Of a stretch of 64,000 nt of DNA, positions 36,969 through 58,300 are shown one piece after another. The notes beneath the pieces are model-generated. The model was not told the DNA's origin. It saw nothing but the letters and a program-made list of their open reading frames with translations, and made no database searches. Numbering within the stretch: position 1 is the stretch's first letter; each line of letters starts with the position of its first letter. Source of the stretch: Euphorbia lathyris (taxonomy: Eukaryota; Streptophyta; Magnoliopsida; Malpighiales; Euphorbiaceae); the NCBI RefSeq assembly GCF_963576675.1, contig NC_088913.1, forward strand, positions 92,317,001 through 92,381,000, given 5' to 3'. The position numbers and the translations under genes are program-made.

Positions 36969-37568
36969 TGTTGAAGGTTTTGAGGTTTTAAGGAGAGAGA
37001 GAAGTTCGATTGCAAGAGATTACAAGCGTAAAGAGTGAAGAGTGGGGATTCTTCCACTTTTTATATAGATTTACGGCGGCCCTTATTCATTAACTAGCCG
37101 TTTTACCTAGGGATGTTCAACCGACAAGGATTCTATCATTTATGACATCTTCGGCGCATGGGATTTGCCATTATTGTGCGTCTTTCCAAGGTGCCAGAGG
37201 TTACACGTGTAGGTTCATTTTACGTGAGTGGGTTTCTTTTTTATTTTTCTAGAATTCGAAGCATTCGTGATGTTGAGTGCCCATGTTTTGTCTATCTCTA
37301 AATAACTCAACATACGTTTGAGCACTCAGTATGTGCTTCTACTCAGCATAAGATGAAGACTCAATATGTCTATCTACTCAGCATGGGATATTTGCTCAAC
37401 AATTGTATCTATTCAGTATAACCACTCAATGTTTATGTCTATTTAGCATGAGGTTATTTTTAAACTTAATAGAGAGTAGATATTTATTGTTAATTTACTT
37501 AGCATGGCATTTGCACATTCATTCAAATTTCCACTCAGTGTAGCAATCATTCAATCATACAGAACTAT
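36969..37568 (-). other. Sirevirus spacer between pol and the env-position ORF, with a repeated CTCARYAT word
   Basis: No ORF. At 37270-37560 the word CTCA(A/G)(C/T)AT, with near variants (TTCAGTAT, TTAGCATG), occurs about ten times at intervals of roughly 15-40 bp. The segment is flanked by the pol stop codon and the ATG of the env-position ORF, and may hold splice or packaging signals. Confidence 0.5.
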
Positions 37569-37675
37569 TTAGAGTGGATTTGACATACCAATGGCTTCCC
37601 TCAGTATATTGAATTGTTCTCGTGCTAAGGGCTTAGTGAAGATATCTGCAAGCTGATCATTTGTTGGCACGTAGG
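37569..37675 (-). pseudogene. C-terminal end of Sirevirus pol (RNase H tail), separated by the E2 insertion
   Basis: On the - strand it reads YVPTNDQLADIFTKPLAREQ and ends EAIGMSNPL with a TAA stop at 37571-37569. It is the direct continuation of the frame that is cut at 55364, about 17.7 kb away. The duplicated GTAGG belongs to the codon context at the break. Confidence 0.85.
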
Positions 37676-38174
37676 TGATAGGGGTCAAAACCCCCTATCT
37701 TTGGGTACGGTTTTAGGACGGGTTTTAGAGTTATTTAGTTAATAAGCGAGCAATTTTCGCATTTAAATGCTTTTGTGTGAGTTAGTTAGAAATTGGAAAC
37801 GTTCTATTTACTTTTCGTCGTTTAGGCTCGTTTTGTGATCAATTTAGGCAAATACGGCCGAAATAGCATGCATAGTATAATTCCGTTATCTTTTAAAGCT
37901 AATTGGTCCGTCAAAAGTCGCACCAAACGAAGCGTTTGCTCAAAATAAGCGATTGACAGATCAATTTGGCTTTTGGACTAATGTTATCTGGAGTTTTTAT
38001 ATGTGCGCAGGTGTAAGTTCGGGCGAAAAAGGACATCGAGGTGATTCGACACGCATTGAGCGCGTTCCGGGCGAAAACGCTCGGCGAGCAGGGCCCCATG
38101 GGCCATTTCTGCTCGCCGAGCAGGCCGCCAGAGGCCTGCTCGGCACGAGCAGCCCTGCTCGCCGAGCAGCTCGC
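37676..38174 (+). repeat. 5' LTR of E2, first part (U3 side)
   Basis: It begins TGATAGGGGTC. After about 390 bp it enters palindromic CTGCTCGCCGAGCAG-type repeats, then stops at CTCGC (38170-38174), the left target duplication of E1. The LTR continues at 47026 after the duplicated CTCGC; the 3' LTR of E2 shows the uninterrupted sequence around CAGCTCGCCCTGCTC. Confidence 0.9.
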
Positions 38175-39860
38175 TGATGCGGATTCCGGAGAATCCTCAC
38201 TAAGGGATAAGTGTACCCCGTCGTTATCAAGTAATAAATTTCTGGTTTAAGTCCAGGTTATCGTCCACAGGATTTATTTCTGCAAGTATCAAGCTACTCG
38301 ATCTCGGATGTTATCTAGGCTTAGGGGGTTTGAGTTTGGTTTGTTTAATTAATCTACTCCTAGGTTGAATTATGCTAATCCTAGCTAAGTTATCTAATTC
38401 TAACTAAGTTATCTAATTCTAGCTGAGTTATCTAATTCTAACTAAATTATATAAGTTATTCTACGCCTAACTAAGTTACTCTACCCCCAATTGATCTTTT
38501 ACCAAAGCAATTAACTGAATGAACATGAAGGAATACGATGATAACAATGATAGAATGTTTAAGCAATTGAATTGAAACTAAGTCGCTTGTGTCCAAGGCG
38601 ATTAACCCGACCTATCCTCCTAAAGTCCCTAGTTCGTGATTCCCTTGTAAGGCCGAAACTAGCTCTAAGGCTCAGTAATTTGGGCTTAATATTCTATAGG
38701 GTCGTCAATCCTATAGGCACTGACTAGGTCAGATTCAGCTCGCAATATGTGCCAACCTAATTTTGGGATTATCGAATGAGTTAAACCAATCAGACAAAGC
38801 GTAAGACAAAGATTAAAACATCAAAACAATTGAATGAACAAAAACTATATTATATATCAAAGATGAATGTATTGTCACGAAGTTACAATAAACCTAGAAT
38901 TCATAGCATGTATCAGAGGCTAGACAGAATATAAAAGAAGAAAAATCCCTTTCAGGGAACCTGTCTACCAATGCAGGCGTCTTTCTAGGATTTAAGGATG
39001 GAGCTTGAGTAATCCTCGGTGAACGGAGCTTCGAAGGTATCTTCAATGGAGGTTTGAAGGATATGGAGGAGGTGGAGAGGATTTCTCAAGGTGGAAGCTA
39101 AGCTAATTACAAAAGTAAAAGATATCTAAATTACAATGGAAAAATCCTATTTATAGACGCATCTCGGGCCTCGTTTTGACCTATTTTCGTGTCCTTGTTG
39201 GTGTAGGAAGACGTGGGGCCGAACGTGGCTTCGTGGGGGTGGAATTGGTCTTTTTGACCAATTCCCGCAGGGCTGCTCGCCGAGCAGGGAAGGCTGCTCG
39301 GCGAGCAGGGCTGCTCGCGCCGAGCAGGCGCCTGGTGGCCTGCTCGGCGAGCAGGCTCCTGCTCGGTGAGCAGGCCTCTGGCGGCCTGCTCGGCGAGCAG
39401 GCCTCCAGAGGCCTGCTCGGCGAGCAGAAATGGCCCGTGGGGCCCTGCTCGCCGAGCGTTTTCGCCCGAAGCGCGCTCGATCCAAGCTCGATGAGTTCCG
39501 CGACCTTTTTCGTCCGACTTCACACCTGCACATGCATAAAAACTCCGGAAAACATTAGTCTAAAAGCCAAATTGACCCGTCAATCGCTTATTTTGAGCAA
39601 ACGCTTCGTTTGGTGCGACTTTTGACGGACCAATTAGCTTCAAAAGATAACGGAATTCTAATACGCATGCTATTTCGACCGTATTTGCCTAAATTGATTA
39701 CAAAACGAGCCTAAACGACGAAAAGTAAATAGAATGTTCTCAATTCCTAACTAACTCACACAAAAGCATTTAAATGCGAGAATTGCTCGCTTATTAACCA
39801 AATAACTCTAAAAACCGTCCTAAAACCGTACCCAAAGATAGGGGTTTTTGACCCCTATCA
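38175..39860 (-). repeat. 3' LTR of E1, 1.69 kb
   Basis: On the - strand it starts TGATAGGGGTC at 39860 and ends AATCCGCATCA at 38175. It is about 100 bp longer than the E1 5' LTR, mainly through extra GCTCGGCGAGCAGG-type units at about 39275-39470. Confidence 0.88.
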
Positions 39861-41590
39861 AACCTCCTCGCACTTAAAACTTTACTTGTCCCCAAGTAAA
39901 CTAAAAAACTAAACCCGCCATCACAAGCAAGCTAGAAAACTTCCCAGTTTGACTAGGTGCTTGACACAATTTCGAGTATCTGTAATTACATGCATTCGGA
40001 AATACAAAGTAGAGACACGATATCCAAAAGCCGCATTTCAATTACAATAGGTCATAGTTTTAAGCAAAAAGGACACATGTTCAATTAAACGAGCTTGAGG
40101 GGATCGCTAAGTAAAACACCTCACCATAGGTAGTTCACTCATTCACACAATTTTTGGTGGCTAAGGTGTTTACTCTCGGCTTATGTTCTTGCTTAGGATT
40201 ACGTTGATTTTACACATTCATCCGAGTTCCTCTACTATGCTATATGACTCCGATGATATCAAAAACAGCCTCTAATTGGGGTTGTAATATGGTTAGAGGG
40301 TTAAAGGTACAACAAAGGTTAAATGTTCTAGCGCTACAAAAACAAAGTTTAAATGGCTTTAGCAAATATGAAGTGACTGAGCTTTTTATTCATCCCTTAT
40401 TATTTTCGTTTTGGGGTGTTTTCTTTGAGACGTTTTTGATTTTTCTAAAAACTGGGGAATGGAGTTCTTCCCTTTTGTTCGTCTCTTTTCTTTTCTTTTT
40501 CTTTTTATGTTTTTCTCTTTCTTTTCCCTTTTTTTTTCTTTTTGGGATAGTGATGCTCATTCACTTTTTAGTCTTTTGGCTTGCTACTGTAATGCCATAA
40601 ACAAAGACAAAGCGCTAGAAGAAAACAAAGGCTCAAGTCGAGCTTTGCAAAAACAAAGGTTAAGCGGCGAACCAAATTGTGGTTCGCAAAAACGGGTTAG
40701 AATGAAAGAAAAATCTACAAACTACAAAAATGTCGGCTCAAAGGGGCTTCCTAGAGTGGATGAAAAAGAAAAACAAGGTAAAGAAAATGGTTAATTCTAA
40801 TGAGGCTGATTCATCGTTTACCATCTAAAATCATTGCATGTAGGTTCAACACAGTATTAGGTGCAAAATCTGTAATCTTCCACAAGTCAAAGCATTCACA
40901 CAAAAATGTCAAGAAAAAGAGCTTTTTGATGTTCGCTCTTAGGCTCAAATTCAGCTCACAATTCTTTGGGTTTCAATTTTGTGTTTACTAGTTTTCCCCA
41001 AACTCAAGTTTAATATCACATGCCTTCAATTCTTAAGTTATCTACCTAAGTAATGATTTTAGCATTTCATCAAAAGTAGGGTCTAAATGCAAACTGTAGC
41101 TCATGCTTTTACAAATATAAGAGTTGTGTCCTACGCCTAAACTAGTTGTCATGCAATTTTAGATTCAGTTCTCAGCCCTCAAAGACAAATAACGAAGTTT
41201 AGATTCGAAGGAGGTTCACGGTTTTAGGTCCTAAACATGAAAAAAAACATAAACAAAACCTAAAAACGCTAAACTAAACTAAACACGACGCAACAAAAAT
41301 TTAAAATTTATACAATTTTTGTAAGTTTGTCTACCCCTCCTCCTCACACTAAAAATATGCAATAAGTTCCAACATTGCATCATAAATCATGAAGTATGAG
41401 TGTAAAAAGTTAGGGTGGAGAAGACAACTTACTAATCGGCCGGGGGGTATGGCCAAGGCATGTTGTAGCGCTCGCAGTAGTCTGCCGCTACGTACTCAAG
41501 ACCCGAAAGCCTTCGGTCCATGTTCTGCTCAAAGTTGGTGAACCGTTGGTCCATCTGCTGAACAGTGTTAAAGGTTCGTAGGTTAAGATC
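39861..41590 (-). other. 3' non-coding region and polypurine tract of E1
   Basis: The polypurine tract on the - strand reads AAGTGCGAGGAGGTT directly before the 3' LTR (about 39875-39861). The region matches the E2 3' region (52780-53783), except that about 0.57 kb (40258-40830), including a long C/T-rich stretch on the + strand at 40436-40556, is absent from E2. No credible ORF; apparent + strand ORFs follow the C/T bias. Confidence 0.7.
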
Positions 41591-42622
41591 TCACATTTCT
41601 GCCATCATAGTGTTGATGGCTTGGAACTGGGCCTCCGTCCCCGGCGCTTGGTGTTCCCTTTGGTCTCCTACTGTCGCAGGTTCTTCTTCCTCGGGTTCCT
41701 TGTCCCTTTGTTGCGGACCCCGTGCTCTTTTTCTTCCCCCTCCGCTGGAACTTGCTCCTCCAGTTGGGTTCCTGTTTAAGACTTCTTGAAAAGTAGATTT
41801 CCCCAAAAACTTGGAGTTAAGCAAAGTAGGGTAAATAGCAATTTCGGGGTTGTCCAAATTTTTAAATTGGCTCTCAAGCAGGTTGGTAACTAAGTGCCCA
41901 AGACCTAGGGAACCACGTTTTCTGCTCGTTTGGCTTGAGAAGCCTTCAAATATGGTCTTAACATTATCCACATGTTTGTGTTTGGCCACGCACCACAGTA
42001 TGAGCAATTCCGTCTTTGAGACTTTATTGCTCTCGTTTTTGCCCAATAAGTTGTGGGCCACAAATTTGTGAACAAGATTGAGAAGTGGGTCTAGGAGAGC
42101 GACTGGGCTAGCAGTCTGGGAGTTAAAGTCTGATATGCCTGTGAGTTGTTCCCAAGCTATATCTTTTGTTATAGGCTTCTCAAAGTCTGAGATCGCCTCT
42201 GGGTGATTATGAACTCCCATTAGGGCTGCTAGTGTGGTAGCATCAAGGCGGTAAGGTTTACCGTTTAGCCTAAAAGAATGCTTCCCACCGCCCAAGGGTA
42301 GCTCCTTTTTCCAAGTGGTCAAGAATTCTATAGTAAAGTTGTGATAAACCGGAGTCTGTGTTGTGGCTAGTCTATACCAGCCGTGGAATTTGAGGATTTC
42401 ATTGAAATCCTTCTTTAAGCCTAGACTCGATAAAAAGGTTTGATCGACAACTACGTGTGTAGCAAGGTCTTGCTTGGAAAACCTATCGTACAAAATTCCC
42501 TCACGTTCATCAATAAGACCAAAGGGTGGATCATACTTAGCTTGGAGGCTTTCGTCGAACTCGACCTCAGATTCGGCTTCGTTCTCGACGACGATCTTAG
42601 CTTTGCCTTTCCGACCCATATT
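41591..42622 (-). CDS. Env-position ORF of E1 (Athila-type ORF / putative plant transposon protein)
   Basis: I chose the ATG at about 42622 (MGRKGKAKIVVE); the open frame extends up to 42709. The product is about 340 residues and ends with AQFQAINTMMAEM. Motifs: FHGWYRLATTQTPVYHNFTI, EFLTTWKKELPLGGGKHSFR, LNGKPYRLDATTLAALMGV. This pattern (W/F..., Y..., EF, then G..., LA.LLG) is shared with the N-terminal domain of the Sirevirus env-position ORF. The C-terminus is Gly/Ser then Glu-rich. No signal peptide or membrane segment is seen, so the env label rests on position only. The frame is unbroken, in contrast to most genes in the nest. Confidence 0.7.
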   Translation of the reverse strand, partial: NMGRKGKAKIVVENEAESEVEFDESLQAKYDPPFGLIDEREGILYDRFSKQDLATHVVVDQTFLSSLGLKKDFNEILKFHGWYRLATTQTPVYHNFTIEFLTTWKKELPLGGGKHSFRLNGKPYRLDATTLAALMGVHNHPEAISDFEKPITKDIAWEQLTGISDFNSQTASPVALLDPLLNLVHKFVAHNLLGKNESNKVSKTELLILWCVAKHKHVDNVKTIFEGFSSQTSRKRGSLGLGHLVTNLLESQFKNLDNPEIAIYPTLLNSKFLGKSTFQEVLNRNPTGGASSSGGGRKRARGPQQRDKEPEEEEPATVGDQREHQAPGTEAQFQAINTMMAEM

Positions 42623-42709
42623 TCCTGAGGAATAGACCAAAAATGGAAGAGTTAGAAAATATTTACAAGTTTCAACATAAACCCCCAATAAACCATTCAT
42701 AGGCAACAA

Positions 42710-43560
42710 TCATAGCTTTAGGCACTTAGGGACTAAACCATAAGTATTTGGTCCCTAAGTCTTTTACCCGAAATTCACAAAATTCATGCAAAATTGAAGA
42801 TACCCAATGACTAAAACATAAAAAGAATGCAATTCACAACTCTATTGACAAGTTTCTAACTATGATTTGAATAGTTGAACTTTGAGCTAAAATGGGGATT
42901 TTGCCCAAATTGAGCAATTTCTCCAAATATTCACAAATTGAGAATAGAAATCACACCCAAACTATAGATTAATCATTATGTTAACATAAATTGCAAGGAA
43001 ATTAAGAGTTTAAAAGCAAACAAGACATTAATTTGAGAAAAAGAAAAAAAAAAACCAAAACTTAGGTTTTTCTCAAACCTCAAAAATTATCACCCTAAGC
43101 TAAAATCTAAGCCTATGAACATGTTAGAAATCAAAAATAGGTAAAGATTCATACCTTATATCTTGAATTCGGGTTAGAATGAAGAATTTGGGGGGTTAGG
43201 TTTTGAAGAAGCAAAAGAGGAAGGAGAAGGGAAGAATGAAAGAATATGATAAAAAGAAAGAAGAGAGAAGGAAAGAAGAAGGTGGGGAAGGGGATGATGA
43301 GTCACCCCCCCTTTTTCTTTTCTTATTCTTTTCTTTATTTTTTTTTCTTCTTTCTTTCTCTTTTTTTTTTTTTTTTTTATAATAGAGTGCGGGGGAACAA
43401 AGTTTGACAGTATAAATAAACAAACGAGATCAAAATTCAATTAACCAAAATAATAAAAGGAAATAGGAGCAAAATAAAAACAAAAAGAAAAGAAAATGCA
43501 GAATCAAATTGTTCAAACTTTGGATTAAAAACCGAGGAGAACCCGATTTCTCCCCCTTAC
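42710..43560 (-). other. E1 spacer where pol is expected, with a polypurine/polypyrimidine hairpin
   Basis: No ORF of pol is present. On the + strand 43200-43300 is almost all A/G and 43310-43378 almost all C/T, so the strand can fold back or form triplex DNA. Apparent ORFs here are compositional. Confidence 0.6.
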
Positions 43561-44989
43561 TCAATCCTTTCTCAGGATCTTTGGATTCTTCTCCGTTGTG
43601 CTCGAGAGAGAACCCTGTGGCCTTTCCTGCCTGTCCCTATTAATCTGAGCCACCTGATTGCTCAAGTCCTTGCAGAAGGCTTCATTGTTGGCAAGCCTAG
43701 CTGAGATCTCCTTCAGAAGAGTGATCACTTCGTCAGATTCCTTAGGATGTTGCACTGGCCCTTGATTTTGCTGTTGGTATGGGGGCATGCCAAGCCCCTG
43801 CTCTCTATGCTCTTGAACAAATCCGCTAGGAGGTCGGAGCACATTCTGATTTGAATTCCCGTAAGAGAGGTTCGGGTGCTGAGGCCTCCTGTAGTTGCCA
43901 TTGTTGTTGTAGGAGTTGTAGTTGTTGGGGTTACCGTTGTTGTAGTTCTGATTGTATCTCGGCTGCCCCCCAATGTAATTGACCATCTCCACCGAAAGGG
44001 CTACCTGCTTGACAATCCTTTCCATTGTGGTCGCCGCCACAGTGCACGCAGGTGGGAGGTCGGCTAAGCGTAGCCAACAGTACATCCATCTTCCTACTCA
44101 AATCTGCAACAGCTGGATTTTGTTCCTGTTCTTCCACAGCAAATACCCGCTGCCTAGTGGGGCCGGCGAGCTTCTGTTCTTGCCACTGCACACTCTTTCT
44201 GGCCAGCTCATTAATCATGTCATATGCCTCTGCTGCTGTCTTTCTAAACAAATCTCCACCCGCTGCGGAGTCGACAATGGCTCTGTTTGTGGTTGTCAGT
44301 CCGTGATAGAAGACGCTCACTAACTGATGCTTGGGTATGTCATGATGAGGGCACATGCGCAGCATTTTCCTGAATCGAGTCCAAGATGTGTGGAGTGCCT
44401 CATGCTCGGGTTGGTGGAAGGATGTGATCTCACCCCTGAGCATTGCTGTCTTCGAGGGAGGGAAGTAGTAGGACAAGAATTCCTTCTCCAACCCTGCCCA
44501 TGTTGTGATTGAACCTGGCTCTAGTGTTCTCAGCCATTCCAAAGCTTGCCCCGTCAGAGAGAATGGGAACAGTTTCAGTCTAGCAGCATCTTGGGGGACC
44601 CCATTGGTCCTTACAGTGTCTGTGCACATTAGGAAGCGATCCAGATGATCATTCGGGCTCTCGTGTGCTTCTCCTCCAAAGAGTCCGGTCTGTTGGATCA
44701 AGTGAATTATACCAGACTTGATTTCGTATGTGTTTGCCGGAATGTTTGGAGCAGCAATTCCTGACAGATGCTGATGTCGGTGGGGTGCCAGGATCTCACT
44801 CATCAGACGAGTGTCGCTCTCTGGTCCGGTGTTCTCATTGTTCCGTTCATTGTCAGTCATCTTGATGGGCTCGATAGGCTCGATGATCTCGTCTTGCTTC
44901 AGCTTTCCGATCTGTTTGCTCCTGCGAAGAGTACGTTCAAGTTCAGGGTTAAGAGGGACAACCGGTATTTTCGCTGATCTCGTAGGCAT
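43561..44989 (-). pseudogene. gag of E1, capsid intact, one frameshift
   Basis: The ATG at 44989 gives MPTRSAKIPVVPLNPELE, typical of Athila gag. The capsid domain has GGEAHESPNDHLDRFLMC, LFPFSLTGQALEWLRTL, EFLSYYFPPSKTAMLRGEI and FHQPEHEALHTSWTRFRKML. The zinc-like motif CVHCGGDHNGKDC follows near 44060-44020. The frame shifts just after it; the remainder reads Asn/Gln-rich (QNYNNGNPNNYNSYNNN) and ends at 43561 with helix-like LLKEISARLANNEAFCKDLS. The shift comes after the capsid and zinc parts, so a shortened Gag of about 350 residues could still be made. Confidence 0.83.
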
Positions 44990-45346
44990 ACGCTGAGAAA
45001 AGATAAGTACAGAAATAAATGAAAGCTGAAGGGAAATCTTACAAATCATACAGGTTTGTACAAGTATAAGAATGGTATAGGTAAACATATACAGACACGT
45101 ATAGGTGAAGTTGATAGCTACATGTTCGTACAAACGAATACACACAAGCGTAAGTATAAACAAGGATGGTTATCATAAATGAGTATATATAAATAAGTGT
45201 ATATAAACAAGTATAAACGGTATAGATACGTAGTAAAAAGAATCATGATCATAAACAAGTATATATGATATTAACAAGGAAAGTATTCACAAAGAATGCC
45301 TAAACTAACAAGTCGACCTTTGGTTCGATATTGCAGAAGAAATAAA

Positions 45347-45437
45347 TCCCCGGCAACGGCGCCAAAAACTTGATTATTGGCGGTTGTCGGGTATTTATAG
45401 AATTAATCTACTATCCCCGGCAACGGCGCCAAAAACT
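45347..45437 (-). other. Primer binding site of E1, present twice
   Basis: TGGCGCCGTTGCCGGGG (- strand) lies directly after the LTR end (45437-45414) and again about 67 bp further in (45370-45347). The spacer between includes TATTTATAG. Athila-type elements use this PBS. E2 has a single copy. Confidence 0.8.
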
Positions 45438-47020
45438 TGATGCGGATTCCGGAGAATCTTCACTAAGGGATAAGTGTACCCCGTCGTTATCAAGTAATAA
45501 ATTTCTGGTTTAAGTCCAGGTTATCGTCCACAGGATTTATTTCTGCAAGTATCAAGCTACTCGATCTCGGATGTTATCTAGGCTTAGGGGGTTTGAGTTT
45601 GGTTTGTTTAATTAATCTACTCCTAGGTTGAATTATGCTAATCCTAGCTAAGTTATCTAATTCTAACTAAGTTATCTAATTCTAGCTGAGTTATCTAATT
45701 CTAACTAAATTATCTAAGTTATTCTACGCCTAACTAAGTTACTCTACCCCTAATTGATCTTTTACCAAAGCAATTAACTGAATGAACATGAAGGAATACG
45801 ATGATAACAATGATAGAATGTTTAAGCAATTGAATTGAAACTAAGTCGCTTGTGTCCAAGGCGATTAACCCGACCTATCCTCCTAAAGTCCCTAGTTCGT
45901 GATTCCCTTGTAAGGCCGAAACTAGCTCTAAGGCTCAGTAATTTGGGCTTAATCTTCTATAGGGTCGTCAATCCTATAGGCACTGACTAGGTCAGATTCA
46001 GCTCGCAATATGTGCCAACCTAATTTTGGGATTATCGAATGAGTTAAACCAATCAGACAAAGCGTGAGACAAAGATTAAAACATCAAAACAATTGAATGA
46101 ACAAAAACTATATTATATATCAAAGATGAATGTATTGTCACGAAGTTACAATAAACCTAGAATTCATAGCATGTATCAGAGGCTAGACAGAATATAAAAG
46201 AAGAAAAATCCCTTTCAGGGAACCTGTCTACCAATGCAGGCGTCTTTCTAGGATTTAAGGATGGAGCTTGAGTAATCCTCGGTGAACGGAGCTTCGAAGG
46301 TATCTTCAATGGAGGTTTGAAGGATATGGAGGAGGTGGAGAGGATTTCTCAAGGTGGAAGCTAAGCTAATTACAAAAGTAAAAGATATCTAAATTACAAT
46401 GGAAAAATCCTATTTATAGACGCATCTCGGGCCTCGTTTTGACCTATTTTCGTGTCCTTATTGGTGTAGGAAGACGTGGGGCCGAACGTGGCTTCGTGGG
46501 GGTGGAATTGGTCTTTTTGACCAATTCCCGCAGGGCTGCTCGCCGAGCAGGGAAGGCTGCTCGCCGAGCAGGCCTCCAGAGGCCTGCTCGCCGAGCAGAA
46601 ATGGCCCGTGGGGCCCTGCTCGCCGAGCGTTTTTGCCCGAAGCGCTCTCGATGAGTTCCGCGACCTTTTTCGTCCGACTTCACACCTGCACATGCATAAA
46701 AACTCCGGAAAACATTAGTCCAAAAGCCAAATTGATCCGTCAATCGCTTATTTTGAGCAAACGCTTCATTTGGTGCGACTTTTGACGGACCAATTAGCTT
46801 CAAAAGATAACGGAATTCTAATACGCATGCTATTTCGGCTGTATTTGCCTAAATTGATTACAAAACGAGCCTAAATGACGAAAAGTAAATAGAATGTTCT
46901 CAATTCCTAACTAACTCACACAAAAGCATTTAAATGCGAGAATTACTCGCTTATTAGCCAAATAACTCTAAAAACCGTCCTAAAACCGTACCCAAAGATA
47001 TGGGTTTTTGACCCCTATCA
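45438..47020 (-). repeat. 5' LTR of E1, 1.58 kb
   Basis: On the - strand it runs from TGATAGGGGTC-like sequence at 47020 (with one change, ATATGGG on the + strand) to CCGCATCA at 45438. A TATA box (TATAAATA) lies at 46418-46411. The palindromic array is short (46535-46630). Confidence 0.88.
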
Positions 47021-47025
47021 CTCGC

Positions 47026-48113
47026 CCTGCTTGGCGAGCAACCCTGCGGGAATTGGTCAAAAAGACCAATTCCGCCCCCACGAAGCCACGTTTGACCCCA
47101 CGTCTTCCTACACCAACAAGGACACGAAAATAGGTCAAAACGAGGCCCGAGCCGCGTCTATAAATAGGATTTTTCCATTGTAATTCAATATCTTTCGTTT
47201 TTGTAAATTATTTTAGCTTTCCCCTTGTAATTCCTCTCCATCTTCTCCATATCTTCTTCAACCTCCATTGAAGCTCCTTCAAAGTTCTTCCTCGAGGAAT
47301 TATCAAGGTCCGTCCTTAAGATTAAGTCGCCGGCTGCAGAGTAAATAGGTTCCCTGAAAGGGATTTTTGTATCTCCTTTTATCTTTCCTTGTTTGTACTC
47401 TTTGATACAGTTGCCGAACTTGACTTATTGTATCTTGTGACAATTATCTTCGCCTTTAATAATAATTTAGCTCTTGTTTTGTTCTATGATTATTTGTTTA
47501 ATCTCTGTCTTACGCTTTATTCAATTGGTTTAACTCATTCAAAAGCCCCAAAATCTAGTAGGCACATATTGCGAGCTGAATCTGACCTAGTCAGAGCCTA
47601 GGAGATTGACGACCTCTTAGTTGATTAAGCGCCAATTTACTGAGCCTTAGACCTAGTTTCGGCCTTAAGAATCACGCGCTAGGAACCTCAGGAGGGTAAG
47701 TAGGGTTAATCGCCTTGAATACAAGTGACTCAGATTAGGTTTTTATTCAATAGACTTGATAATCTATCTTCATTATTATCGTTCATACCATGTTCCTTCG
47801 AATAATTGCATTAGTGAAAGATCAATTAGGGGTAGAGTAACTTAGTTAGGCGTAGAATAACTTAGCTAGAATTAGATAACCTAGATAGAATTAGATAACT
47901 TAGCTAGGATTAGTATAATTCAACCTAGGAGTAGATTAACTTAAACAAACCAACTCAAAACCCCCTAAGCCTAGATAACATTCGAGATCGAGTAGCTCGG
48001 TACTTGCAGAAATAAATCCTGTGGACGATAACCTGGACTTAAACCAGAAATTTATTACTTGATAACGACGGGGTACACTTATCCCTTAGTGAGGTTTCGC
48101 GGAAACCGCATCA
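47026..48113 (+). repeat. 5' LTR of E2, second part (U3 end, R, U5)
   Basis: It continues the E2 LTR after the E1 insertion and its CTCGC duplication (47021-47025). A TATA box (TATAAATA) is at 47159-47166. It ends GGAAACCGCATCA at 48113, directly followed by the primer site. Confidence 0.9.
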
Positions 48114-48312
48114 AGTTTTTGGCGCCGTTGCCGGGGATTTATTTCTTCTGCAATATCGAAGCAAAGGTCGACTTGTTAGTTTAGGCATTCTTTGTGAATA
48201 TATCCTTTGTTAATATCATTTATACTTGTTTATATATATTCTTGTTTATAGTAACTATACTTATTGATTACTTAACATTACTTGTACTTACAAAATCGTT
48301 CTTCCAGCAACT
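48114..48312 (+). other. Primer binding site and leader of E2
   Basis: TGGCGCCGTTGCCGGGG follows the LTR by a few bases (about 48119-48136). The leader up to the gag remnant is only about 175 bp and AT-rich, with no ORF. Confidence 0.8.
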
Positions 48313-48693
48313 ATGGATAACAGAGCGTCAAATCCGTCCATGAACGATCTTAACACAAAAATGGATTTCCTTGTGGCTTCATACAACCATAATGACCAAC
48401 CAAGGACTCCATTTTGCGAGAGATGCGACCAAAATCACCCCGGTATGGTATGCCACATCAACTATTACGTACCTAGAGGTGAGAATGTAAGTTATTTGGG
48501 TAATCATCAAAGGTATAATTCTGAACCCTCAACTTACAACTACTACGATCAGGAGCATACACGATATCCACCGATGCCCTACATGGCACCCGTGGATACC
48601 CTTCCATGTCCCCATTCTAACTCTGACTTTTATGGCAGGCAAACAGAGTAGTCAGGAGGAATAATAACCCTCTTAAGAGATATATCCGTCCGA
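48313..48693 (+). pseudogene. gag remnant of E2 (zinc-motif part only)
   Basis: The ATG at 48313 opens MDNRASNPSMNDLNTKMDF, aligning with the part of E1 gag just before its zinc motif (DLSRKMDVLLA). CERCDQNHPGMVC follows. The whole capsid domain is missing. A TAG at 48649-48651 ends the open stretch; the same frame continues through [12 protein letters not shown] into pol, as in gag of E1 (EISARLANNEA). Confidence 0.78.
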
Positions 48694-51600
48694 TTGGCAG
48701 CCAACGAGGAGGCATGCATGACCCTGAGTAACCAGCTTGCCACAATCAGACAAGAAGAAAGGGAATGCCATGAGGCATTCCTCTTACAAGAAGAGGCGAT
48801 TCAAGCCATCGCCCTAAGGAGCGGCAAGGAAGTGGACACACTCGTGGCACCTCCATCGCAAACATATCTGTCACCTCAGGTAAGTAGGGAACCGGAAGTG
48901 GTAAGCAACCCCGGTCCCGCATCTGAAACTCCAGCTCCTGAAGTAGCTGTAGAAAAAGTAGTTAGGCCTTATACACCAAAACTGTCATTCCCTCAGAAGC
49001 AGAAAAAGGCCAACTTAGATAAGAAATTTGCTCGGTTTTCGGAAATCCTTAGTAGATTAGAAATAAACATTCCATTAATGGAAGCACTAGAGGAGATGCC
49101 GAACTATGCAAAATTTCTTAAAGACATGTTGTCGAAAAATAAAAAGTTTGGGGAAAATGAGATAGTGGCTTTAACAGAACAATGCTCGGCCATAATCACC
49201 CATAAATTACACCCCAAGCTTAAAGATCAAGGGAGCTTTACCATCCCATGTAGGATAGGCAACATGCACATAGATAGGGCATTATGCGATTTAGGAGCAA
49301 GTATTAATCTTATGCCTTTATCAATTTTCAGGAAATTGGGACTCGGAGAGCCTAAACCGACAAACATGACACTACAGCTGGCGGACAGGTCGATTGCACG
49401 GCCTAGAGGCATAGTTGAAGATGTATTGGTGAAGGTGGACAAACTGATCTTCCCGGTCGATTTTGTGGTCCTCGACATGGAAGAAGATGACTCCGTCCCC
49501 ATTCTCCTCGGGAGACCGTTTCTTGCAACCGGTAGGACACTGATAGACGTCCATGGAGGTAAATTAGTCCTAAGGGTGCAGGACGAAGAAGTAACATTTA
49601 ACGTTTATGAGTCTATGAAATTTCCTCAAGAACGCTCCAAAAGTTGTAACTTTGTGGATGCACTAATAGATGAATGTATTGAGGAAGTTGACCTTAGCAT
49701 AAGAAAAGCCTCTTTAGAACTCGGTCTAGGTGGTGAGGAATGTGAAAACTCGAATGAACCATTTGAAGATCTCCCACCTGAAAAATGTTATTGGGTTAAG
49801 GGAAGAAAAGAGGACCTTGATCGTGAGATCAAACCTAAGCCTAAAACCTCGTTAGAGGAACCTCCAAAATTGGAGCTTAAACCCTTACCCAACAACCTGA
49901 AATATGTTTTTCTTCAACCTCCCACAGATTTACCCGTTATTATTTCTTCTTTGTTGACAGTTGAACAGGAAGAAAAATTGGTGGAGGTGCTGATGGAGCA
50001 TAAAGGGGCCTTTGGATGGTCAATCCACGACATCAAAGGCATCGACCCCAAAATCTGCACGCATAGAATTTTCCTTGAGGAAGAGATCAAGCCATATGCC
50101 CAACCTCAACGACGGCTCAACCCTAACATGAAAGAGGTGGTAAAAGTCGAGGTTATAAAACTCCTTGACGTAGGTATCATCTTTCCGATTTCTGACAGCC
50201 AATGGGTAAGCCCGGTTCAATGCGTGCCCAAAAAAGGGGGAACAACGGTAATGGAAAATGAAAAAGGGGAATTAATCCCAACTAGAAAGGTTACGGGTTG
50301 GCGTGTATGCATAGATTATAGGAAATTAAACGAGGCCACCCGTAAAGACCACTTTCCCTTACCATTTATTGATCAAATGTTGGAACGGTTGGCAGGGCAC
50401 GAATTTTTCTGTACTTTAGATGGGTTATCCGGCTATATGCAAATTCCTGTGGACCCTCTGGATCAAGAGAAAACCACATTCACTTGCCCCTATGGGACTT
50501 TTTCATATAGGCGGATGCCTTTCGGATTATGTAATGCCCCTGCCACATTCCAACGTTGTATGATGGCTATGTTTTCTGACATGGTCGAGGATTTCCTAGA
50601 AATTTTCATGGATGATTTTAATGTTGTAGGACCTACTTTCGACCAATGTCTTGAAAACTTGGACCGAGTCTTAGAACATTGTGAAGACAAGAACTTGGCA
50701 CTTAATTGGGAAAAGTGCCAGTTCATGGTCCAAAATTGTATAGTATTAGGACACAAGGTGTCGGGGAAGGGGATCGAGGTCGATCCAGCAAAAATTGAGG
50801 TAATTGAAAAACTGCCACCTTCTACCAATGTGAAATTGGTTAGGAGCTTTTTAGGACATGCGGGGTTTTATAGACGGTTCATAAAAGACTTTTCAAAAAT
50901 CACTAAACCCCTCACTCAATTATTACTGAAAGATGCTGATTTTAATTTCAATGAAGAATGTATGCTTGCATTTAAATTACTGAAAAAGAAATTAATTGAA
51001 GCACCCATTATGGTAAGCCCGGATTGGTCCCTTCCCTTTGAGTTAATGTGCGATGCCAGTGATCTGGCCGTAGGAGCCTGTCTTGGGCAGAGGGTGGATA
51101 AACTTTTTCGCCCAATTTTCTATGCTAGCAAAACCTTGAATGATGCACAGCAAAACTATTCAATAACTGAAAAGGAATTGCTAGCCGTAGTCTTTGCTTT
51201 TGACATATTTAGATCTTTTTTGTTGCTATCTAAGGTAATTGTTTTTACTGACCATGCAGCCTTGAGATATCTGATGAGCAAGCAGGATGCAAAACCTAGG
51301 CTGATCCGTTGGATCTTACGACTCCAAGAATTTGACATCGAGATCAGAGACAAAAAAGGGGTGGAAAACATAATAGCAGACCACCTATCTAGGTTAGAGT
51401 CAGATCAACAAACCTTAGAGCATGAGACAATCAAGGAGGTATTTCCGGACGAAACATTGTATTCGGTACGATCTCTCCCCTGGTTTGCAGACATCGCAAA
51501 CTACAAAGTCGGTAACATTCTTCCCCCTGATTTAGATGCAAGCAAGAAACGTAAGTTTATGTTTGAAAACAAACAATACTTTTGGGAAGAACCATACTTG

Positions 51601-52779
51601 ATTCGATTCTGCACTGATGGCATAATTAGGAGATGTATACCTGAAGAGGAGGTAGATTCAGTGATTAATATGTGTCATTCTAGGGAACTAGGTGGCCATT
51701 TCGGGCCAGATAGGACAGTGGCAAAAATCCTTCAAAGTGGGTTTTGGTGGCCACAAATGCATAAAGATGTTAATAACTATATTAAATACTGTGATGCATG
51801 TCAGAGAGTAGGAAATATCTCTAGGAGAAATGAGATGCTTCAACAAGGTATACTCGTGTGTGAGCTATTTGATGTTTGGGGCATATACTTCATGGGACCT
51901 TTCCCCATGTCACACACCAACCAATACATTCTTGTGGCGGTTGATTATGTTTCCAAATGGGTAGAAGCAGAAGCTCTACCCACAAATGATGCTCGAGTAG
52001 TGATGAGATTTCTGAGAAAGAATATTTTTACTAGATTCGGGACCCCCCGGACCATCATCAGTGATGGGGGATCCCATTTTTGCAATAGGCAATTTGACAT
52101 GTTGCTCCAAAAGTATGGCGTAGCTCATAGGGTTGCAACACCCTACCACCCTCAAACGAGTGGCCAAGTAGAAGTGTCAAATAGGGAGTTAAAACATATT
52201 CTTGAGAAAACAGTAGGGAATGCTAGAAAAGACTGGAGCCTTAAGCTGGATGATGCTCTTTGGGCATATCGGACAGCTTTTAAGACTCCAATAGGAATGT
52301 CCCCCTATCGTTTAGTTTTCGGAAAATCTTGTCACTTACCGGTTGAACTAGAGCATAAGGCTTATTGGGCGCTGAAATATTTGAATTTTGACCCAAAACT
52401 TTCAGGTGAACTACGACTAACTCAGCTGCACAAACTGGATGAACTCCGGTACAACTCTTACGAAAATGCCAAGCTATACAAAGAATGAACCAAAAGGGTG
52501 CATGATAGGAAAGTACAAAAGAAAACCTTTGAACTAGGTGATCAAGTACTACTATACAACTCCCGATTGAGATTCTTCCCGGGCAAAGTCAAAAGTAGAT
52601 GGCATGGACCATTCTCGGTCATCAACGCACACCCCTCTGGAATGGTTGAAATCAAAGGGAGGGATGGAGCCACCCAAAAGGTAAATGGGCACCGCCTAAA
52701 GCTTTATCTTGGCAAGAACGATTCGGACGTACAAGTTCTGCGCCTACAGACAAGCACAGAATGGGCGGCCGATCAGTAA
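48694..52779 (+). pseudogene. pol of E2: protease, reverse transcriptase, RNase H, integrase
   Basis: One frame runs 48694-52488, stops at TGA (52486-52488), and continues in frame to 52779. Protease: [11 protein letters not shown] with the catalytic Asp at 49288, closing [44 protein letters not shown] and FMDDF at about 50605-50619 (FMDD instead of YVDD is usual in Athila). RNase [36 protein letters not shown]. Integrase: HHCC zinc part ([17 protein letters not shown]), then GIYFMGPF, where Tyr (TAC, 51886-51888) stands at the first catalytic Asp; the second Asp (ISDGGSHF) and Glu (GQVEVSNRE) are present. The tail has VLLYNSRLRFFPGKVKSRW and GPFSV. RT and RNase H look intact; integration should fail. 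Confidence 0.9.
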
Positions 52780-53783
52780 GTTGTCTTCTCCACCCTAACT
52801 CTTTACACTCGTACTTCATGATTTGTGATGCAATGTTGGAACTTATTGCATATTTTTAGTGTGAGGAGGAGGGGTAGACAAACTTACAAAAATTGTATAA
52901 ATTTTTAATTTTTGTTGCGTCGTGTCTAGTTTAGTTTAGCGTTTTTGGGTTCTATTTATGTTTTTGTGTGTTTAGGACCTAAAACCGTGAACCTCCTTCG
53001 AATCTAAACTTCGTTATTTGTCTTTGAGGGCTGAGAACCGAATCTAAAATTGCATGACAACTAGTTTAGGCGTAGGACACAACTCTTGTATCTGTAAAAG
53101 CATGAGCTAAAGTTTGCATTTAGACCCTACTTTTGAAGAAATGCTAAAATCATTACTTAGGTAGATAACTTAAGAATTGAAGGCATGTGACATTAAACTT
53201 GAGTTTGGGGAAAACTAGTAAACACAAAATTGAAACCCAAAGAATTGTGAGTTGAATTTGAGCCCAAGAGCGAACATCAAAAAGCTCTTTTTCTTGACCT
53301 TTTTGTGTGAATGCTTTGACTTGTAGAAGATTACAGATTTTGCACCTAATACTGTGTTGAACCTACATGCAATGGTTTGAGATGATATCATCGGAACCAT
53401 ATGGCATAGTAGAGGAACGCGGATGAACGTGCAAAATCAATGTAATCCTAAGCAAGAACATAAGCCGAGAGTAAACACCTTAGCCACCAAAAATTGTGTG
53501 AAATGAGTGAACTACCTGTGGTGAGGTGTTTTACTTAGCGATCCCCTTAAACTCGTTTAATTGAACATGTGTCCATTTGCTTAAAACTATGACCCATGAT
53601 AATTGAAATGCGGCTTTTGGATATCGTGTCTCTACTTTGTATTTCCGAATGCATGTAATTACAAATGCTCGAAACTGTGTCAAGCACCTAGTCAAACCGG
53701 GAGGTTTTCTAGCTTGCTTGTGATGGCGGGTTTAGTTTTTTAGTTTACTTGGGGACAAGTAAAGTTTTAAGTGCGAGGAGGTT
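52780..53783 (+). other. 3' non-coding region and polypurine tract of E2
   Basis: It is homologous to the E1 3' region in inverse orientation (shared blocks such as GTGAGGAGGAGGGGTAGAC). No env-position ORF. It ends with the polypurine tract AAGTGCGAGGAGGTT (53769-53783) directly before the 3' LTR. Confidence 0.75.
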
Positions 53784-55358
53784 TGATAGGAGTCAAAAAC
53801 CCCTATCTTTGGGTACGGTTTTAGGACGGGTTTTAGAGTTATTTAGTTAATAAGCGAGCAATTTTCGCATTTAAATGCTTTTGTGTGAGTTAGTTACAAA
53901 TTGGAAACGTTCTATTTACTTTTCGTCGTTTAGGCTCGTTTTGTGATCAATTTAGGCAAATACGGCCGAAATAGCATGCATAGTATAATTCCGTTATCTT
54001 TTAAAGCTAATTGGTCCGTCAAAAGTCGCACCAAACGAAGCGTTTGCTCAAAATAAGCGATTGACGGATCAATTTGGCTTTTGGACTAATGTTATCTGGA
54101 GTTTTTATACGTGCGCAGGTGTAAGTTCGAGCGAAAAAGGACATCGAGGTGATTTGGCATGCATCGAGCGCGTTCCGGGCGAAAACGCTCGGCGAGCAGG
54201 CCGCCAGGCGCCTGCTCGGCGAGCAGGGGGCTGCTCGGCGCGAGCAGCCCTGCTCGCCGAGCAGCTCGCCCTGCTCGGCGAGCAACCCTGCGGGAATTGG
54301 TCAAAAAGACCAATTCCGCCCCCACGAAGCCACGTTTGACCCCACGTCTTCCTACACCAACAAAGACACGAAAATAGGTCAAAACGAGGCCCGAGCCGCG
54401 TCTATAAATAGGATTTTTCCATTGTAATTCAATATCTTTCGTTTTTGTAAATTATTTTAGCTTTCCCCTTGTAATTCCTCTCCATCTTCTCCATATCTTC
54501 TTCAACCTCCATTGAAGCTCCTTCAAAGCTCTTCCTCGAGGAATTATCAAGGTCCGTCCTTAAGATTAAGTCGCCGGCTGCAGAGTAAACAGGTTCCCTG
54601 AAAGGGATTTTTGTATCTCCTTTTATCTTTCCTTGTTTGTACTCTTTGATACAGTTGCCGAACTTGACTTATTGTATCTTGTGACAATTATCTTCGCCTT
54701 TAATAATAATTTAGCTCTTGTTTTGTTCTATGATTATTTGTTTAATCTCTATCTTATGCTTTATTCAATTGGTTTAACTCATTCAAAAGCCCCAAAATCT
54801 AGTAGGCACATATTGCGAGCTGAATCTGACCTAGTCAGAGCCTAGGAGATTGACGACCTCTTAGTTGATTAAGCGCCAATTTACTGAGCCTTAGACCTAG
54901 TTTCGGCCTTAGGGAATCACACGCTAGGAACCTCAGGAGGGTAAGTAGGGTTAATCGCCTTGAATACAAGTGACTCAGATTAGGTTTTTATTCGATAGAC
55001 TTGATAATCTATCTTCATTATTATCGTTCATACCATGTTCCTTCGAATAATTGCATTAATGAAAGATCAATTAGGGGTAGAGTAACTTAGTTAGGCGTAG
55101 AATAACTTAGCTAGAATTAGATAACCTAGTTAGAATTAAATAACTTAGCTAGGATTAGTATAATTCAACCTAGGAGTAGATTAACTTAAACAAACCAACT
55201 CAAAACCCCCTAAGCCTAGATAACATCCGAGATCGAGTAGCTCGGTACTTGCAGAAATAAATCATGTGGACGATAACCTGGACTTAAACCAGAAATTTAT
55301 TACTTGATAACGACGGGTTACACTTATCCCTTAGTGAGGTTTCGCGGAAACCGCATCA
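53784..55358 (+). repeat. 3' LTR of E2, 1.58 kb
   Basis: It starts TGATAGGAGTC and ends GGAAACCGCATCA; GTAGG follows (55359-55363). TATA box at 54403-54410. The palindromic array lies at 54183-54290 and includes the uninterrupted E1 target sequence. Confidence 0.92.
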
Positions 55359-58300
55359 GTAGGTCAGCTTGATCTCATCTTTTAGTACATGGTCTCTGAT
55401 GAAGTGATGCCTTATGCTAACATGCTTCATCCTGCTGTGTTGGACTGGATTCTTAGATAGATCAATGTCACTTTTGTTGTCGCATTTGATCTCTATTGTC
55501 TTTGTTTTGACTCCGTAATCCTCAAGTTGTTGCTTTATCCATAGGACTTGTGCAACACAGCTTCCAGCAGCCATGTACTCAGCTTCAGTTGTAGACAGAG
55601 CTACAGATGATTGCTTCTTGCTGAACCAAGATACTAGACAGCTTCCAAGGAAATGACATCCTCCCGAAGTACTCTTCCGTTCTAGCTTATCTCGTCCATA
55701 GTCAGCATCAATATATCCAATGAGTGTGAAGTCATTTGAGGTTGGATACCATAGACCTGCATCAACTGAGCTTTGCAAGTATCTAAAAATTCTTTTCACA
55801 GCCGTTAGATGAGATTCCCTGGGGTCAGCTTGATATCTAGCACAATAGCATACTGAGTATTGAATATCCGGTCTACTAGCAGTGAGATAGAGTAAAGAAC
55901 CTATCATACCTCGATAGAGTTTACTATCAACTGACTTACTCTTCTCATCCTTGCACAGGACAATATCAGTTCCCATGGGGGTTGATATTGGTTTGCAATC
56001 TACCATGCTGAATTTCTTTAACATTTCCTTGGTGTACTTAGACTGACTTATAAAGATGCCATTCTTACCTTGCTTAATTTGAAGTCCAAGGAAGAAGTTG
56101 AGTTCACCCATCATTGACATTTCAAACTCAGTTTGCATCTGTTGGCTAAATTCTTTGCACAAAGACTCGCCAGTAGCACCAAATATTATCATCTACGTAT
56201 ATCTGTGCAAGTAAGGTATGTTTACCCTTTTTCTTAATAAACAAGGTTGTGTCAGCTTTTCCTCTGACATAGTTCCTGGTGAGCAGGAAATTGGTCAACC
56301 TCTCATACCAAGCTCTTGGAGCTTGTTTTAGGCCATACAAGGCCTTTTTGAGTTTATAAACATGGTTTGGAAACTTTGAATCTTCAAACCCAAGAGGTTG
56401 ATTAACATATACCTCTTCGTTTATAAAGCCATTAAGAAATGCACTTTTCACATCCATTTGGTATAGTTTAAAATTCATGAAACGAGCATAGGCACACAAT
56501 ATACGTATAGCTTCTAGCCTAGCAACAGGTGCAAATGTTTCTCCATAGTCTATACCTTCTTGCTGACTATAGCCTTGGGCTACAAGTCGAGCTTTGTTTC
56601 TAATCACATTTCCATGCTCATCTAGTTTATTTCTAAAGACCCACTTGGTTCCTATGGGCTTTTGATTCCTAGGTCTAGGCACTAGATCCCATACCTCATT
56701 TCTGGTGTATTGGTCAAGTTCTTCTTGCATGGCATTTATCCAATATTCATCTTGCTCAGCATCACCAAAATTCTTTGGCTCAAGCATTGAGACGAAGGCA
56801 ACATTGCTAAGGTATTTTCTAAGTTGATCTCTGGTCATCAACTTGTTTTTGGCAGCATCAAGAATGGCCTGTTCTGTATGTCCTCTTGGGATCTTTATTT
56901 CCTTGGGCAATGTTGAGTCATTTGGAAGAGGTGTTTCTACAATCTCTACATGAATAGATTGGTCAGCAAATGATATTTCAATTTCTTGCTTACCTTGGGT
57001 CAGCTCCTGTATAGATGACACAGAGGCTTCTGGTTGATCAGCGGAAGCTGAGCTTGGTTCATCTTCTTCAGGCTGAGCTGACTTACCTGTAGGGTCAGTT
57101 TCATCGAACTCAACATGCACAGACTCTTCTACAACCTGAGTTCTTTTGTTAAAAACTCTATATGCTTTACTGTTTGTTGAGTACCCTAAAAAGATCGCCT
57201 CGTCAGCTTTATCATCAAATTTAGCAAGGTTGTCTTTTGTATTGAGTATAAAGCATTTACACACAAAGGCACGAAAGTATCCAATGTTTGGCTTTCGTCC
57301 TTTCCAAAGCTCATATGGGGTTTTGTTAAGTATAGGTCTAACTAGAGCCCTATTTAGTATGTAACATGCCGTGTGAATAGCTTCACCCCAGAAGTACTTT
57401 GGAAGCCTATTTTCACTCAGCGTTGTCCTAGATATTTCGACAATAGTTTTATTTTTCCTTTCAACGACCCCATTTTGTTGAGGTGTTCTAGGAGCAGAGA
57501 AGTTGTGGTCAATACCACTGGTTTCACAGAATTCATCAAACTGTTGGTTTTTGAATTCTCCACCATTGTCGCTTCTAATGTGAGCTACTCTTAGGTCTTT
57601 GTCATTTTCAAGCTTTTTTATCAGTGTGGTAAACATCTCAAAAGTTTCATCCTTGCTGCTCAGCAAGATGATCCAAGTGTACCGAGAGAAATCATCTACA
57701 ATAACCAAGGAAAATTTCTTACCTCCCAAGCTGAGTGGCTGGATAGGTCCGAAAAGATCCAAGCGTAGTAATTCCAATGGTCTTTTGGTTGAGACAATAT
57801 GTTTGCTATGAAATGACTTTTTAGTTTGTTTGCCTTGCTGACAAGCTTTACACAGTTGATCTTTTTCAAACTTTAATTTGGGTAATCCCTCAACTAATTG
57901 CTTTCTAGCTAATTTGGCAAGAAGGTCCATACTGACATGCCCAAGTCTTCTATGCCATAGCCAGGAGTTGTCCTCTTTAGACACCAAGCATATGTTTTTA
58001 GAAAACTGTTTTTCTAGGTTTAACATGTATACATTTTCTACACGAGAGGCAGTTAAAATCAATTCATTTGTATTTCCCTCAAGTATTTGACACTTAGTAT
58101 CATCAAATACAACCTTTCTGCCGCTCTTGCAAAGCTGAGCTACACTCAGCAGATTGTATTTGAGACCTTTAACTAAGGAGACAGACTCAATGGTTGGGTT
58201 ACCTCCGATAGTACCTGAGCCGACTATCTTACCCTTCTTGTTGTCTCCAAAGCTTACACTTCCACCTCGTTTAAGCTCTAGTGTGATGAACTGAGTTTCA

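What the first reader, a model, noticed from the sequence alone, without database searches (positions are those of the whole stretch)
37676..55358. Two nested Athila-like elements with complementary gene sets
E1 keeps gag (capsid and zinc motif) and an env-position ORF but has no pol. E2 keeps protease, RT, RNase H and integrase but lacks the capsid and any env-position ORF. They share LTR type, primer site and polypurine tract. Either could in principle supply what the other lacks, as known for other non-autonomous/autonomous retroelement pairs. E1 has a recently duplicated LTR pair despite lacking pol, so it must have moved with enzymes from elsewhere; a relative of E2 is the obvious candidate. 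A stable split-genome strategy, and not mere decay, would be new.
Basis: partly seen in the sequence, partly recalled or inferred. Interest (0 to 1): 0.75.

Follow-up and report, generated by a model that had tools for sequence, protein, structure and literature searches.

The report
Nested pol-less and capsid-less Athila retrotransposons
Two related plant jumping genes sit one inside the other; the inner one belongs to a type that has lost its enzymes and exists in more than one copy, the outer one is a patchwork that lacks its shell gene, and although each has what the other lacks, nothing here shows that they evolved as partners.

Summary
The anatomy is real. E2 (37676-55358, +) carries a 5-bp target-site duplication; E1 (38175-47020, -), with its own, sits inside E2's 5' LTR. 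E1 has gag and an env-position ORF (ORF3) but no pol; E2 has protease-RT-RNase H-integrase but no capsid and no ORF3. PBS, polypurine tract and LTR ends are nearly identical.

E1's pol loss is probably not private decay. A separately annotated Euphorbia lathyris Gag (P0001, 95%) ends in the same tail, TEKNPKILRKD-stop, where the other 34 of 35 retrieved proteins with that motif read on. ORF3 has five E. lathyris relatives. E1 thus looks like a member of an amplified pol-less gag+ORF3 Athila subfamily, a class described in Arabidopsis (PMC2410132).

For E2 no second copy was found. It is mosaic: leader and 3' region about 95-96% identical to E1, its residual gag only about 33% (protein). Its pol frame ends in ORF3's last three codons. 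Its integrase lacks the first catalytic Asp present in 37 of 37 matched relatives, and the gag-pol frame has two stops.

Cross-mobilisation and recombination between Athila lineages explain this best. A stable reciprocal split genome is not excluded but unsupported; the source genome could not be searched.

The parts
37671..37675 (.). E2 target-site duplication, left copy (GTAGG)
   Evidence: sequence; right copy 55359-55363
55359..55363 (.). E2 target-site duplication, right copy (GTAGG)
37676..38174 (+). E2 5' LTR, first part (interrupted by E1)
   Evidence: self-BLAST
47021..48113 (+). E2 5' LTR, second part (its first 5 bases are E1's target-site duplication)
53784..55358 (+). E2 3' LTR
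   Evidence: LTR pair K2P 0.0206 +/- 0.0036
38170..38174 (.). E1 target-site duplication (CTCGC); other copy 47021-47025
45438..47020 (-). E1 5' LTR
38175..39860 (-). E1 3' LTR
   Evidence: LTR pair K2P 0.0121 +/- 0.0027
45347..45437 (-). E1 primer-binding site region, the PBS present twice (45414-45431 and 45347-45364; E2 has it once, 48120-48137)
43931..44989 (-). E1 gag, capsid and zinc knuckle, first frame (ATG 44987-44989)
   Evidence: PF03732; 323 of 339 aligned columns as in P0001
43561..44097 (-). E1 gag C-terminal part in a second frame, ending TEKNPKILRKD-stop: the pol-less junction
   Evidence: 137 of 145 aligned columns and the same tail in P0001
42620..43560 (-). E1 stretch between gag and ORF3 without a recognised gene; no protease, RT, RNase H or integrase
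41591..42619 (-). E1 ORF3 (env position; ATHILA ORF / Transposase_32 family), ends at a premature stop
   Evidence: five E. lathyris relatives
41432..41590 (-). rest of the ORF3 reading frame beyond the premature stop, read apart
40819..41442 (-). 3' non-coding block (with ORF3's last codons) shared with E2 52766-53387 (598 of 622 aligned bases)
40262..40818 (-). about 557 bp present in E1 and absent from E2
48114..48243 (+). E2 PBS and leader, 122 of 128 aligned bases as in E1
   Evidence: extended to 48291 the match is 84%
48313..48651 (+). E2 residual gag: zinc-knuckle part only, no capsid, ends at TAG
48652..52488 (+). E2 gag tail, protease, RT, RNase H, integrase in one open frame, ends at TGA; first catalytic Asp of integrase replaced
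52489..52779 (+). E2 pol C-terminal part, whose last three codons and stop match those of ORF3
52766..53783 (+). E2 3' region to PPT, shared with E1

Best explanation
E1 is one decayed copy of a multi-copy, pol-less Athila subfamily (LTR, gag, ORF3, LTR) in Euphorbia, very probably E. lathyris. Its RNAs are packaged with its own or related Gag and copied and inserted by enzymes made by other, pol-bearing Athila elements. E2 is a chimeric Athila copy: LTR ends, leader and 3' region of the type found in E1, but a partial gag and a pol from a long-separated lineage. It was probably made by template switching between two RNAs in one particle, the right-hand switch falling in ORF3's last codons. 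E1 later landed in E2's LTR by chance. Shown: the anatomy, the nesting, the recurring E1 gag tail, the stretch-wise mosaic identity, the broken genes. Inferred: that the other copies lack pol too, supply of enzymes in trans, co-packaging, and that E2 already lacked capsid when it inserted.
For: Nesting with two TSDs; LTR divergences fit E1 younger than E2 (K2P 0.0121 vs 0.0206). P0001, an open E. lathyris Gag that differs from E1 by 18 mismatched columns and short gaps, ends with E1's exact TEKNPKILRKD tail; of 35 retrieved proteins with the TExNP motif, 34 read on (29 into the usual LR(S/N)G linker, 5 into altered ones) and P0001 alone stops. ORF3: 5 of 5 hits are E. lathyris, 73-95%. Mosaic: leader 122/128, 3' blocks 598/622 and 381/400 identical bases, but the shared gag-tail stretch 65/102 bases and the knuckle region 33% of 54 residues against P0001. 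E2 pol ends ...WAADQ-stop; ORF3 ends ...ADQ-stop in the 2 of 5 relatives that reach the end, one only 73% identical, so that ending is old in ORF3. Published frame: PMC2410132 (parts 1-4 of 6 read), PMC5668417 (passages read).
Against: Only one other protein reaches E1's gag tail; the DNA behind P0001 was not seen, so a pol further downstream is possible. The 35-protein comparison is enriched for pol because most came from a pol query. Contigs are known only by length, and some may be one chromosome in two assemblies. E2's capsid loss could be a deletion after insertion. The leader stretch was cut where identity falls; extended to 188 columns it is 84%. No formal recombination test was run. 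No expression or particle data.
Confidence: 0.7

Rival explanations
1. Stable reciprocal split genome: a gag+ORF3 lineage (E1 type) and a pol-only lineage (E2 type) both amplify with fixed deletions and each needs the other.
For: Gene sets are complementary; PBS, PPT and LTR ends are shared; the E1 type recurs; the mosaic implies past co-packaging (PMC5668417 passages). Some pol proteins of other plants also begin downstream of the capsid and stand for many members (P0025 34, P0048 37, P0122 36, P0117 2993), though these are gene models and their upstream DNA was not seen.
Against: No close E2-type copy among the best 120 of 5288 hits; E2's integrase lacks a catalytic Asp and its frame has two stops; 19 of those 120 listed proteins carry gag, RT and integrase domains together, so in plants at large full-length elements exist, though none listed is named E. 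lathyris.
Confidence: 0.08
2. Coincidental decay: both elements were full-length when inserted and lost different genes by later private deletions.
For: Both carry damage: frameshift and stop in E1, two stops and a missense in E2; for E2 nothing excludes a later deletion of capsid.
Against: E1's junction tail recurs in P0001; E2 looks mosaic, which deletion alone does not make.
Confidence: 0.13
3. E1 is a one-sided parasite (a variant of the best explanation): it amplifies with Gag and Pol from full-length elements, and its gag and ORF3 are passengers.
For: No DNA of other copies was available, so selection on gag and ORF3 could not be measured.
Against: P0001 keeps a 500-codon open gag and P0136 a 397-codon open ORF3; ORFs of pol-less Arabidopsis Athila elements tested in PMC2410132 are under purifying selection.
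Confidence: 0.2

Closest known systems
Pol-less gag+env Athila families of Arabidopsis (II, IIIa, IVc, Va, VI in Table 1; PMC2410132, parts 1-4 of 6 read)
   Same: LTRs, gag and an env-position ORF, no pol; multi-copy; recombination between distant Athila lineages.
   Different: Other host. In that paper every pol-bearing Athila also has gag, whereas E2 lacks the capsid.
RLG_Cereba / RLG_Quinta of einkorn (PMC11302176, abstract and one Results section read)
   Same: Pair with shared PBS and LTR ends in which the pol-less member encodes Gag.
   Different: Cereba is autonomous; E2 is not. Centromere-specific; chromovirus lineage (recalled).
Tos17 (PMC3977881, abstract and Results read) and BARE-2 (recalled, seen only as a cited title)
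   Same: Pol kept, gag missing, so Gag must come from elsewhere.
   Different: Ty1/copia. Tos17 is active; E2 is broken and keeps a zinc-knuckle piece.
Retand clusters without GAG (PMC11963269, passages read)
   Same: Ty3/gypsy relatives (OTA group) with pol but no GAG domain in 7 of 63 clusters, recently amplified.
   Different: Tat lineage; clusters shown there, a single copy here.
Soybean autonomous/nonautonomous partners with LTR swapping (Du et al. 2010; paper not held, title seen in a reference list)
   Same: Recalled: exchange of LTRs between partner lineages, like the E1/E2 mosaic.
   Different: Other elements; details not checked.

Membership tests
Athila lineage (Ty3/gypsy, OTA) | Ty3/gypsy pol order: protease, RT, RNase H, integrase | tested here: met
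   E2; E1 has no pol and cannot show it
Athila lineage (Ty3/gypsy, OTA) | RT/RH/INT tree position in the Athila clade | not tested
   no tree built
Athila lineage (Ty3/gypsy, OTA) | ORF downstream of pol of the ATHILA ORF family (PF03078, found in 16% of Athila elements in PMC6317226, passages read) | tested here: met
   E1 ORF3 31.6 bits against cut-off 20.2; E2 has none
Athila lineage (Ty3/gypsy, OTA) | PBS matching tRNA-Asp (recalled) | not tested
   PBS TGGCGCCGTTGCCGGGGA present in both; the tRNA assignment is recalled
Pol-less gag+env Athila subfamily (PMC2410132) | LTR, gag and env-position ORF, no pol | tested here: met
   E1
Pol-less gag+env Athila subfamily (PMC2410132) | several copies with the same structure | tested here: inconclusive
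   same gag tail in one further copy (P0001) and five ORF3 relatives; whole loci not seen
Pol-less gag+env Athila subfamily (PMC2410132) | purifying selection on gag and env | not testable with these tools
   no DNA of other copies
Autonomous/non-autonomous pair (criteria in PMC11302176) | identical PBS and LTR ends | tested here: met
   PBS identical, outermost bases TGATAGG and CCGCATCA match
Autonomous/non-autonomous pair (criteria in PMC11302176) | LTR half with promoter and polyadenylation region conserved | tested here: inconclusive
   LTR windows vary from 64 to 95%; promoter and polyA site not mapped
Autonomous/non-autonomous pair (criteria in PMC11302176) | autonomous partner encodes all proteins | tested here: not met
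   E2 lacks capsid, has two stops and an altered integrase
Retroviral envelope (ORF3) | signal peptide and transmembrane segment | tested here: not met
   highest 19-residue hydropathy 1.14-1.20 in P0015, P0136, P0139; N-terminus hydrophilic; simple hydropathy only

The most novel reading that the evidence does not exclude
A two-part retroelement: a gag+ORF3 lineage and a capsid-less pol lineage share packaging and integration signals kept alike by repeated recombination, and neither transposes without the other.
Probability: 0.07. Interest if true: 0.72.

Novelty: new member of a known kind. Interest (0 to 1): 0.33.

Why it matters
It extends the Arabidopsis observation of pol-less gag+env Athila families to Euphorbia, and gives a concrete mosaic (shared ends, foreign pol, crossover at ORF3's stop) that shows how gene sets may be reshuffled between co-packaged retroelements. 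If E2-type copies proved abundant, reciprocal dependence of retroelements would become directly testable.

Tried and rejected
Copia LTR pair: the 98.6% repeat 28594-29684 / 59583-60673, first taken as LTRs of the host copia element and dated with the LTRs, is coding sequence; that date is withdrawn.

Accelerated decay of E2's residual gag as a clock for old capsid loss: E2's knuckle region is divergent (mean 20.2% to the 55 other proteins that have both regions) but E. peplus P0019, with capsid sequence, is similar (22.8%), so nothing follows.

A motif count of capsid-less proteins among the hits was too strict (it also flags proteins with a capsid), so no number is taken from it.

ORF3 fold: AlphaFold from the six-row alignment gave mean pLDDT 36.8, too poor for a fold search. 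BLASTP shows no convincing match of ORF3 to the Transposase_32 ORF of the neighbouring copia element.

Viral-contig scans with ORF3 and with P0001 found no relative. None of the eight literature searches listed a paper whose title or abstract start describes a strictly reciprocal pair; I opened seven papers, in part only, and most subscription papers are not in the library.

Full report
Anatomy. Self-comparison and sequence reading give two complete LTR retroelements. E2 lies on the plus strand at 37676-55358, flanked by GTAGG. E1 lies on the minus strand at 38175-47020, flanked by CTCGC, inside the first LTR of E2. E2 itself interrupts a Ty1/copia RT/RNase H region. LTR divergence is 0.0121 +/- 0.0027 for E1 and 0.0206 +/- 0.0036 for E2, in line with the nesting order but less than two standard errors apart; at 1.5e-8 per site and year (the rate in PMC2410132) this is about 0.4 and 0.7 million years.

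Gene content. E1 has gag (PF03732) with a zinc knuckle, then about 0.9 kb without a recognised gene, then ORF3 (PF20167 at its cut-off, PF03078 above it). Nine further sense frames of E1 give no pol family, and E2's large frame finds only the 41-residue gag tail in E1. E2 has no capsid match, a residual zinc-knuckle piece from 48313, and protease, RT, RNase H and integrase. Both are damaged: E1 gag changes frame in the knuckle region and ORF3 stops early; E2 has stops at 48649 and 52486. E2's integrase lacks the first catalytic Asp, which is Asp in 37 of the 37 retrieved proteins that contain the motif; the five other motifs looked at in E2 (two further integrase residues, RT, protease, RNase H) are present (catalytic roles recalled).

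Is E1 a lineage? The E1 gag search gave 14 proteins. Two are named as Euphorbia lathyris. P0001 (500 aa, 95%) is a different copy: it is open throughout and differs from E1 by 12 of 339 and 6 of 145 aligned columns besides gaps in the two frames, and it ends in the same TEKNPKILRKD tail. P0002 is cut short before that point and says nothing. Among all retrieved proteins, 35 hold the TExNP motif; 29 run into LR(S/N)G within 45 residues, five more into altered versions of that linker (one of them with the linker missing), and only P0001 stops. This set is enriched for pol because most came from a pol query. E. peplus P0019, with capsid and protease sequence in one protein, continues through the same place. 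ORF3 of E1 matches five proteins, all E. lathyris, at 73-95%. The source plant is therefore very probably E. lathyris, and E1 is probably one member of an amplified pol-less type. That it moved in trans follows from the lack of pol at a junction shared with another copy; it was not shown directly, and the DNA behind P0001 was not seen.

Is E2 a lineage? The search with the first 330 residues of E2's large frame scored 7961 candidates and gave 5288 proteins, of which the best 120 were listed; none exceeds 70% identity and none is named E. lathyris. I looked at the N-termini of 21 of these 120, many picked because they lack a gag domain. None resembles E2's own start in sequence, but several start downstream of the capsid core, among them P0025, P0048 and P0122 of Ulmus minor (34, 37 and 36 member sequences) and unnamed P0117 (2993). 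These are gene models; whether capsid lies upstream was not seen. So capsid-less pol proteins may be common in annotation, but for E2 itself only one copy is in hand. The genome in which the window lies could not be searched: the same request was unanswered six times.

Mosaic. Leader (122/128) and 3' blocks (598/622 and 381/400) are about 95-96% identical between E1 and E2, but the shared gag-tail stretch is 65/102 bases and the knuckle region of E2 is 33% of 54 residues identical to P0001. The leader stretch was cut where identity falls; over 188 columns it is 84%. Non-coding ends that are far more alike than the coding sequence between them point to recombination. In the LTRs (one LTR of each compared) four 150-column windows in the middle are 64-82% identical and the others 89-95%, except one at 81% in the tandem-repeat stretch. 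The right-hand border falls at 52766: E2's pol frame ends with ADQ-stop, which is also the end of ORF3 in the two of five relatives long enough to show it (P0136 and P0139). As P0139 is only 73% identical, that ending is old in ORF3, so E2 most simply took its 3' end from an ORF3-bearing element. E2 also lacks about 557 bp of the 3' region present in E1. Template switching between co-packaged RNAs is the known route (PMC5668417, passages read, on one family, Onsen), and past co-packaging is what cross-mobilisation needs.

What is known. Marco and Marin (PMC2410132, parts 1-4 of 6 read) found that 7 of 11 Arabidopsis Athila families lack pol, that elements with intact gag or gag+env ORFs are under purifying selection, inferred that they are mobilised by pol-bearing families, and showed that distant families recombine; they suggest cooperation. 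Gag-less pol-bearing elements exist (Tos17, PMC3977881; seven of 63 Retand clusters without GAG, PMC11963269). Quinta is proposed to supply Gag to Cereba (PMC11302176). A pol-less TR-GAG element transposes in Arabidopsis ddm1 (PMC8704663, abstract). The finding is thus a new example of known kinds. What is not in the passages I read is a strictly reciprocal pair, and the evidence here does not establish one.

'Env'. ORF3 sits where env would sit, but a simple hydropathy scan shows no signal peptide or membrane span; the name env-position ORF is safer. Its fold could not be predicted.

Noticed in passing
45347-45437: E1 carries its primer-binding site twice; the spacer holds an imperfect inverted copy that can pair with the first PBS (MFE -32.8 kcal/mol, z -1.92; 7 of 200 shuffles fold as well).
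   Followed up: partly
28594-29684 and 59583-60673: A 1091-bp copia pol coding segment is present in its own element and again, at 98.6%, pasted into the gag of another copia element; looks like a chimera by template switching.
   Followed up: partly
34039-36987: Two long minus-strand ORFs downstream of the copia RNase H region, one with a Transposase_32 domain, the Pfam family also hit by Athila ORF3.
   Followed up: partly
39271-39427, 46530-46572, 54205-54284: LTRs contain GC-rich palindromic tandem units (CTGCTCGGCGAGCAG) whose number differs even between E1's own two LTRs.
   Followed up: no
42620-43560: Between gag and ORF3 of E1 there is a purine/pyrimidine-rich stretch and a splice-acceptor-like site just before ORF3's ATG; ORF3 may be read from a spliced RNA (by eye).
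   Followed up: no
44987-45000: NCBI's model P0001 seems to use a splice acceptor just before the gag ATG, where E1 has an acceptor-like site too (by eye).
   Followed up: no
P0025, P0048, P0122 (Ulmus minor), P0117 (unnamed): Athila-type pol proteins with many members whose models begin downstream of the capsid; may be real capsid-less elements or gene-model cuts.
   Followed up: no
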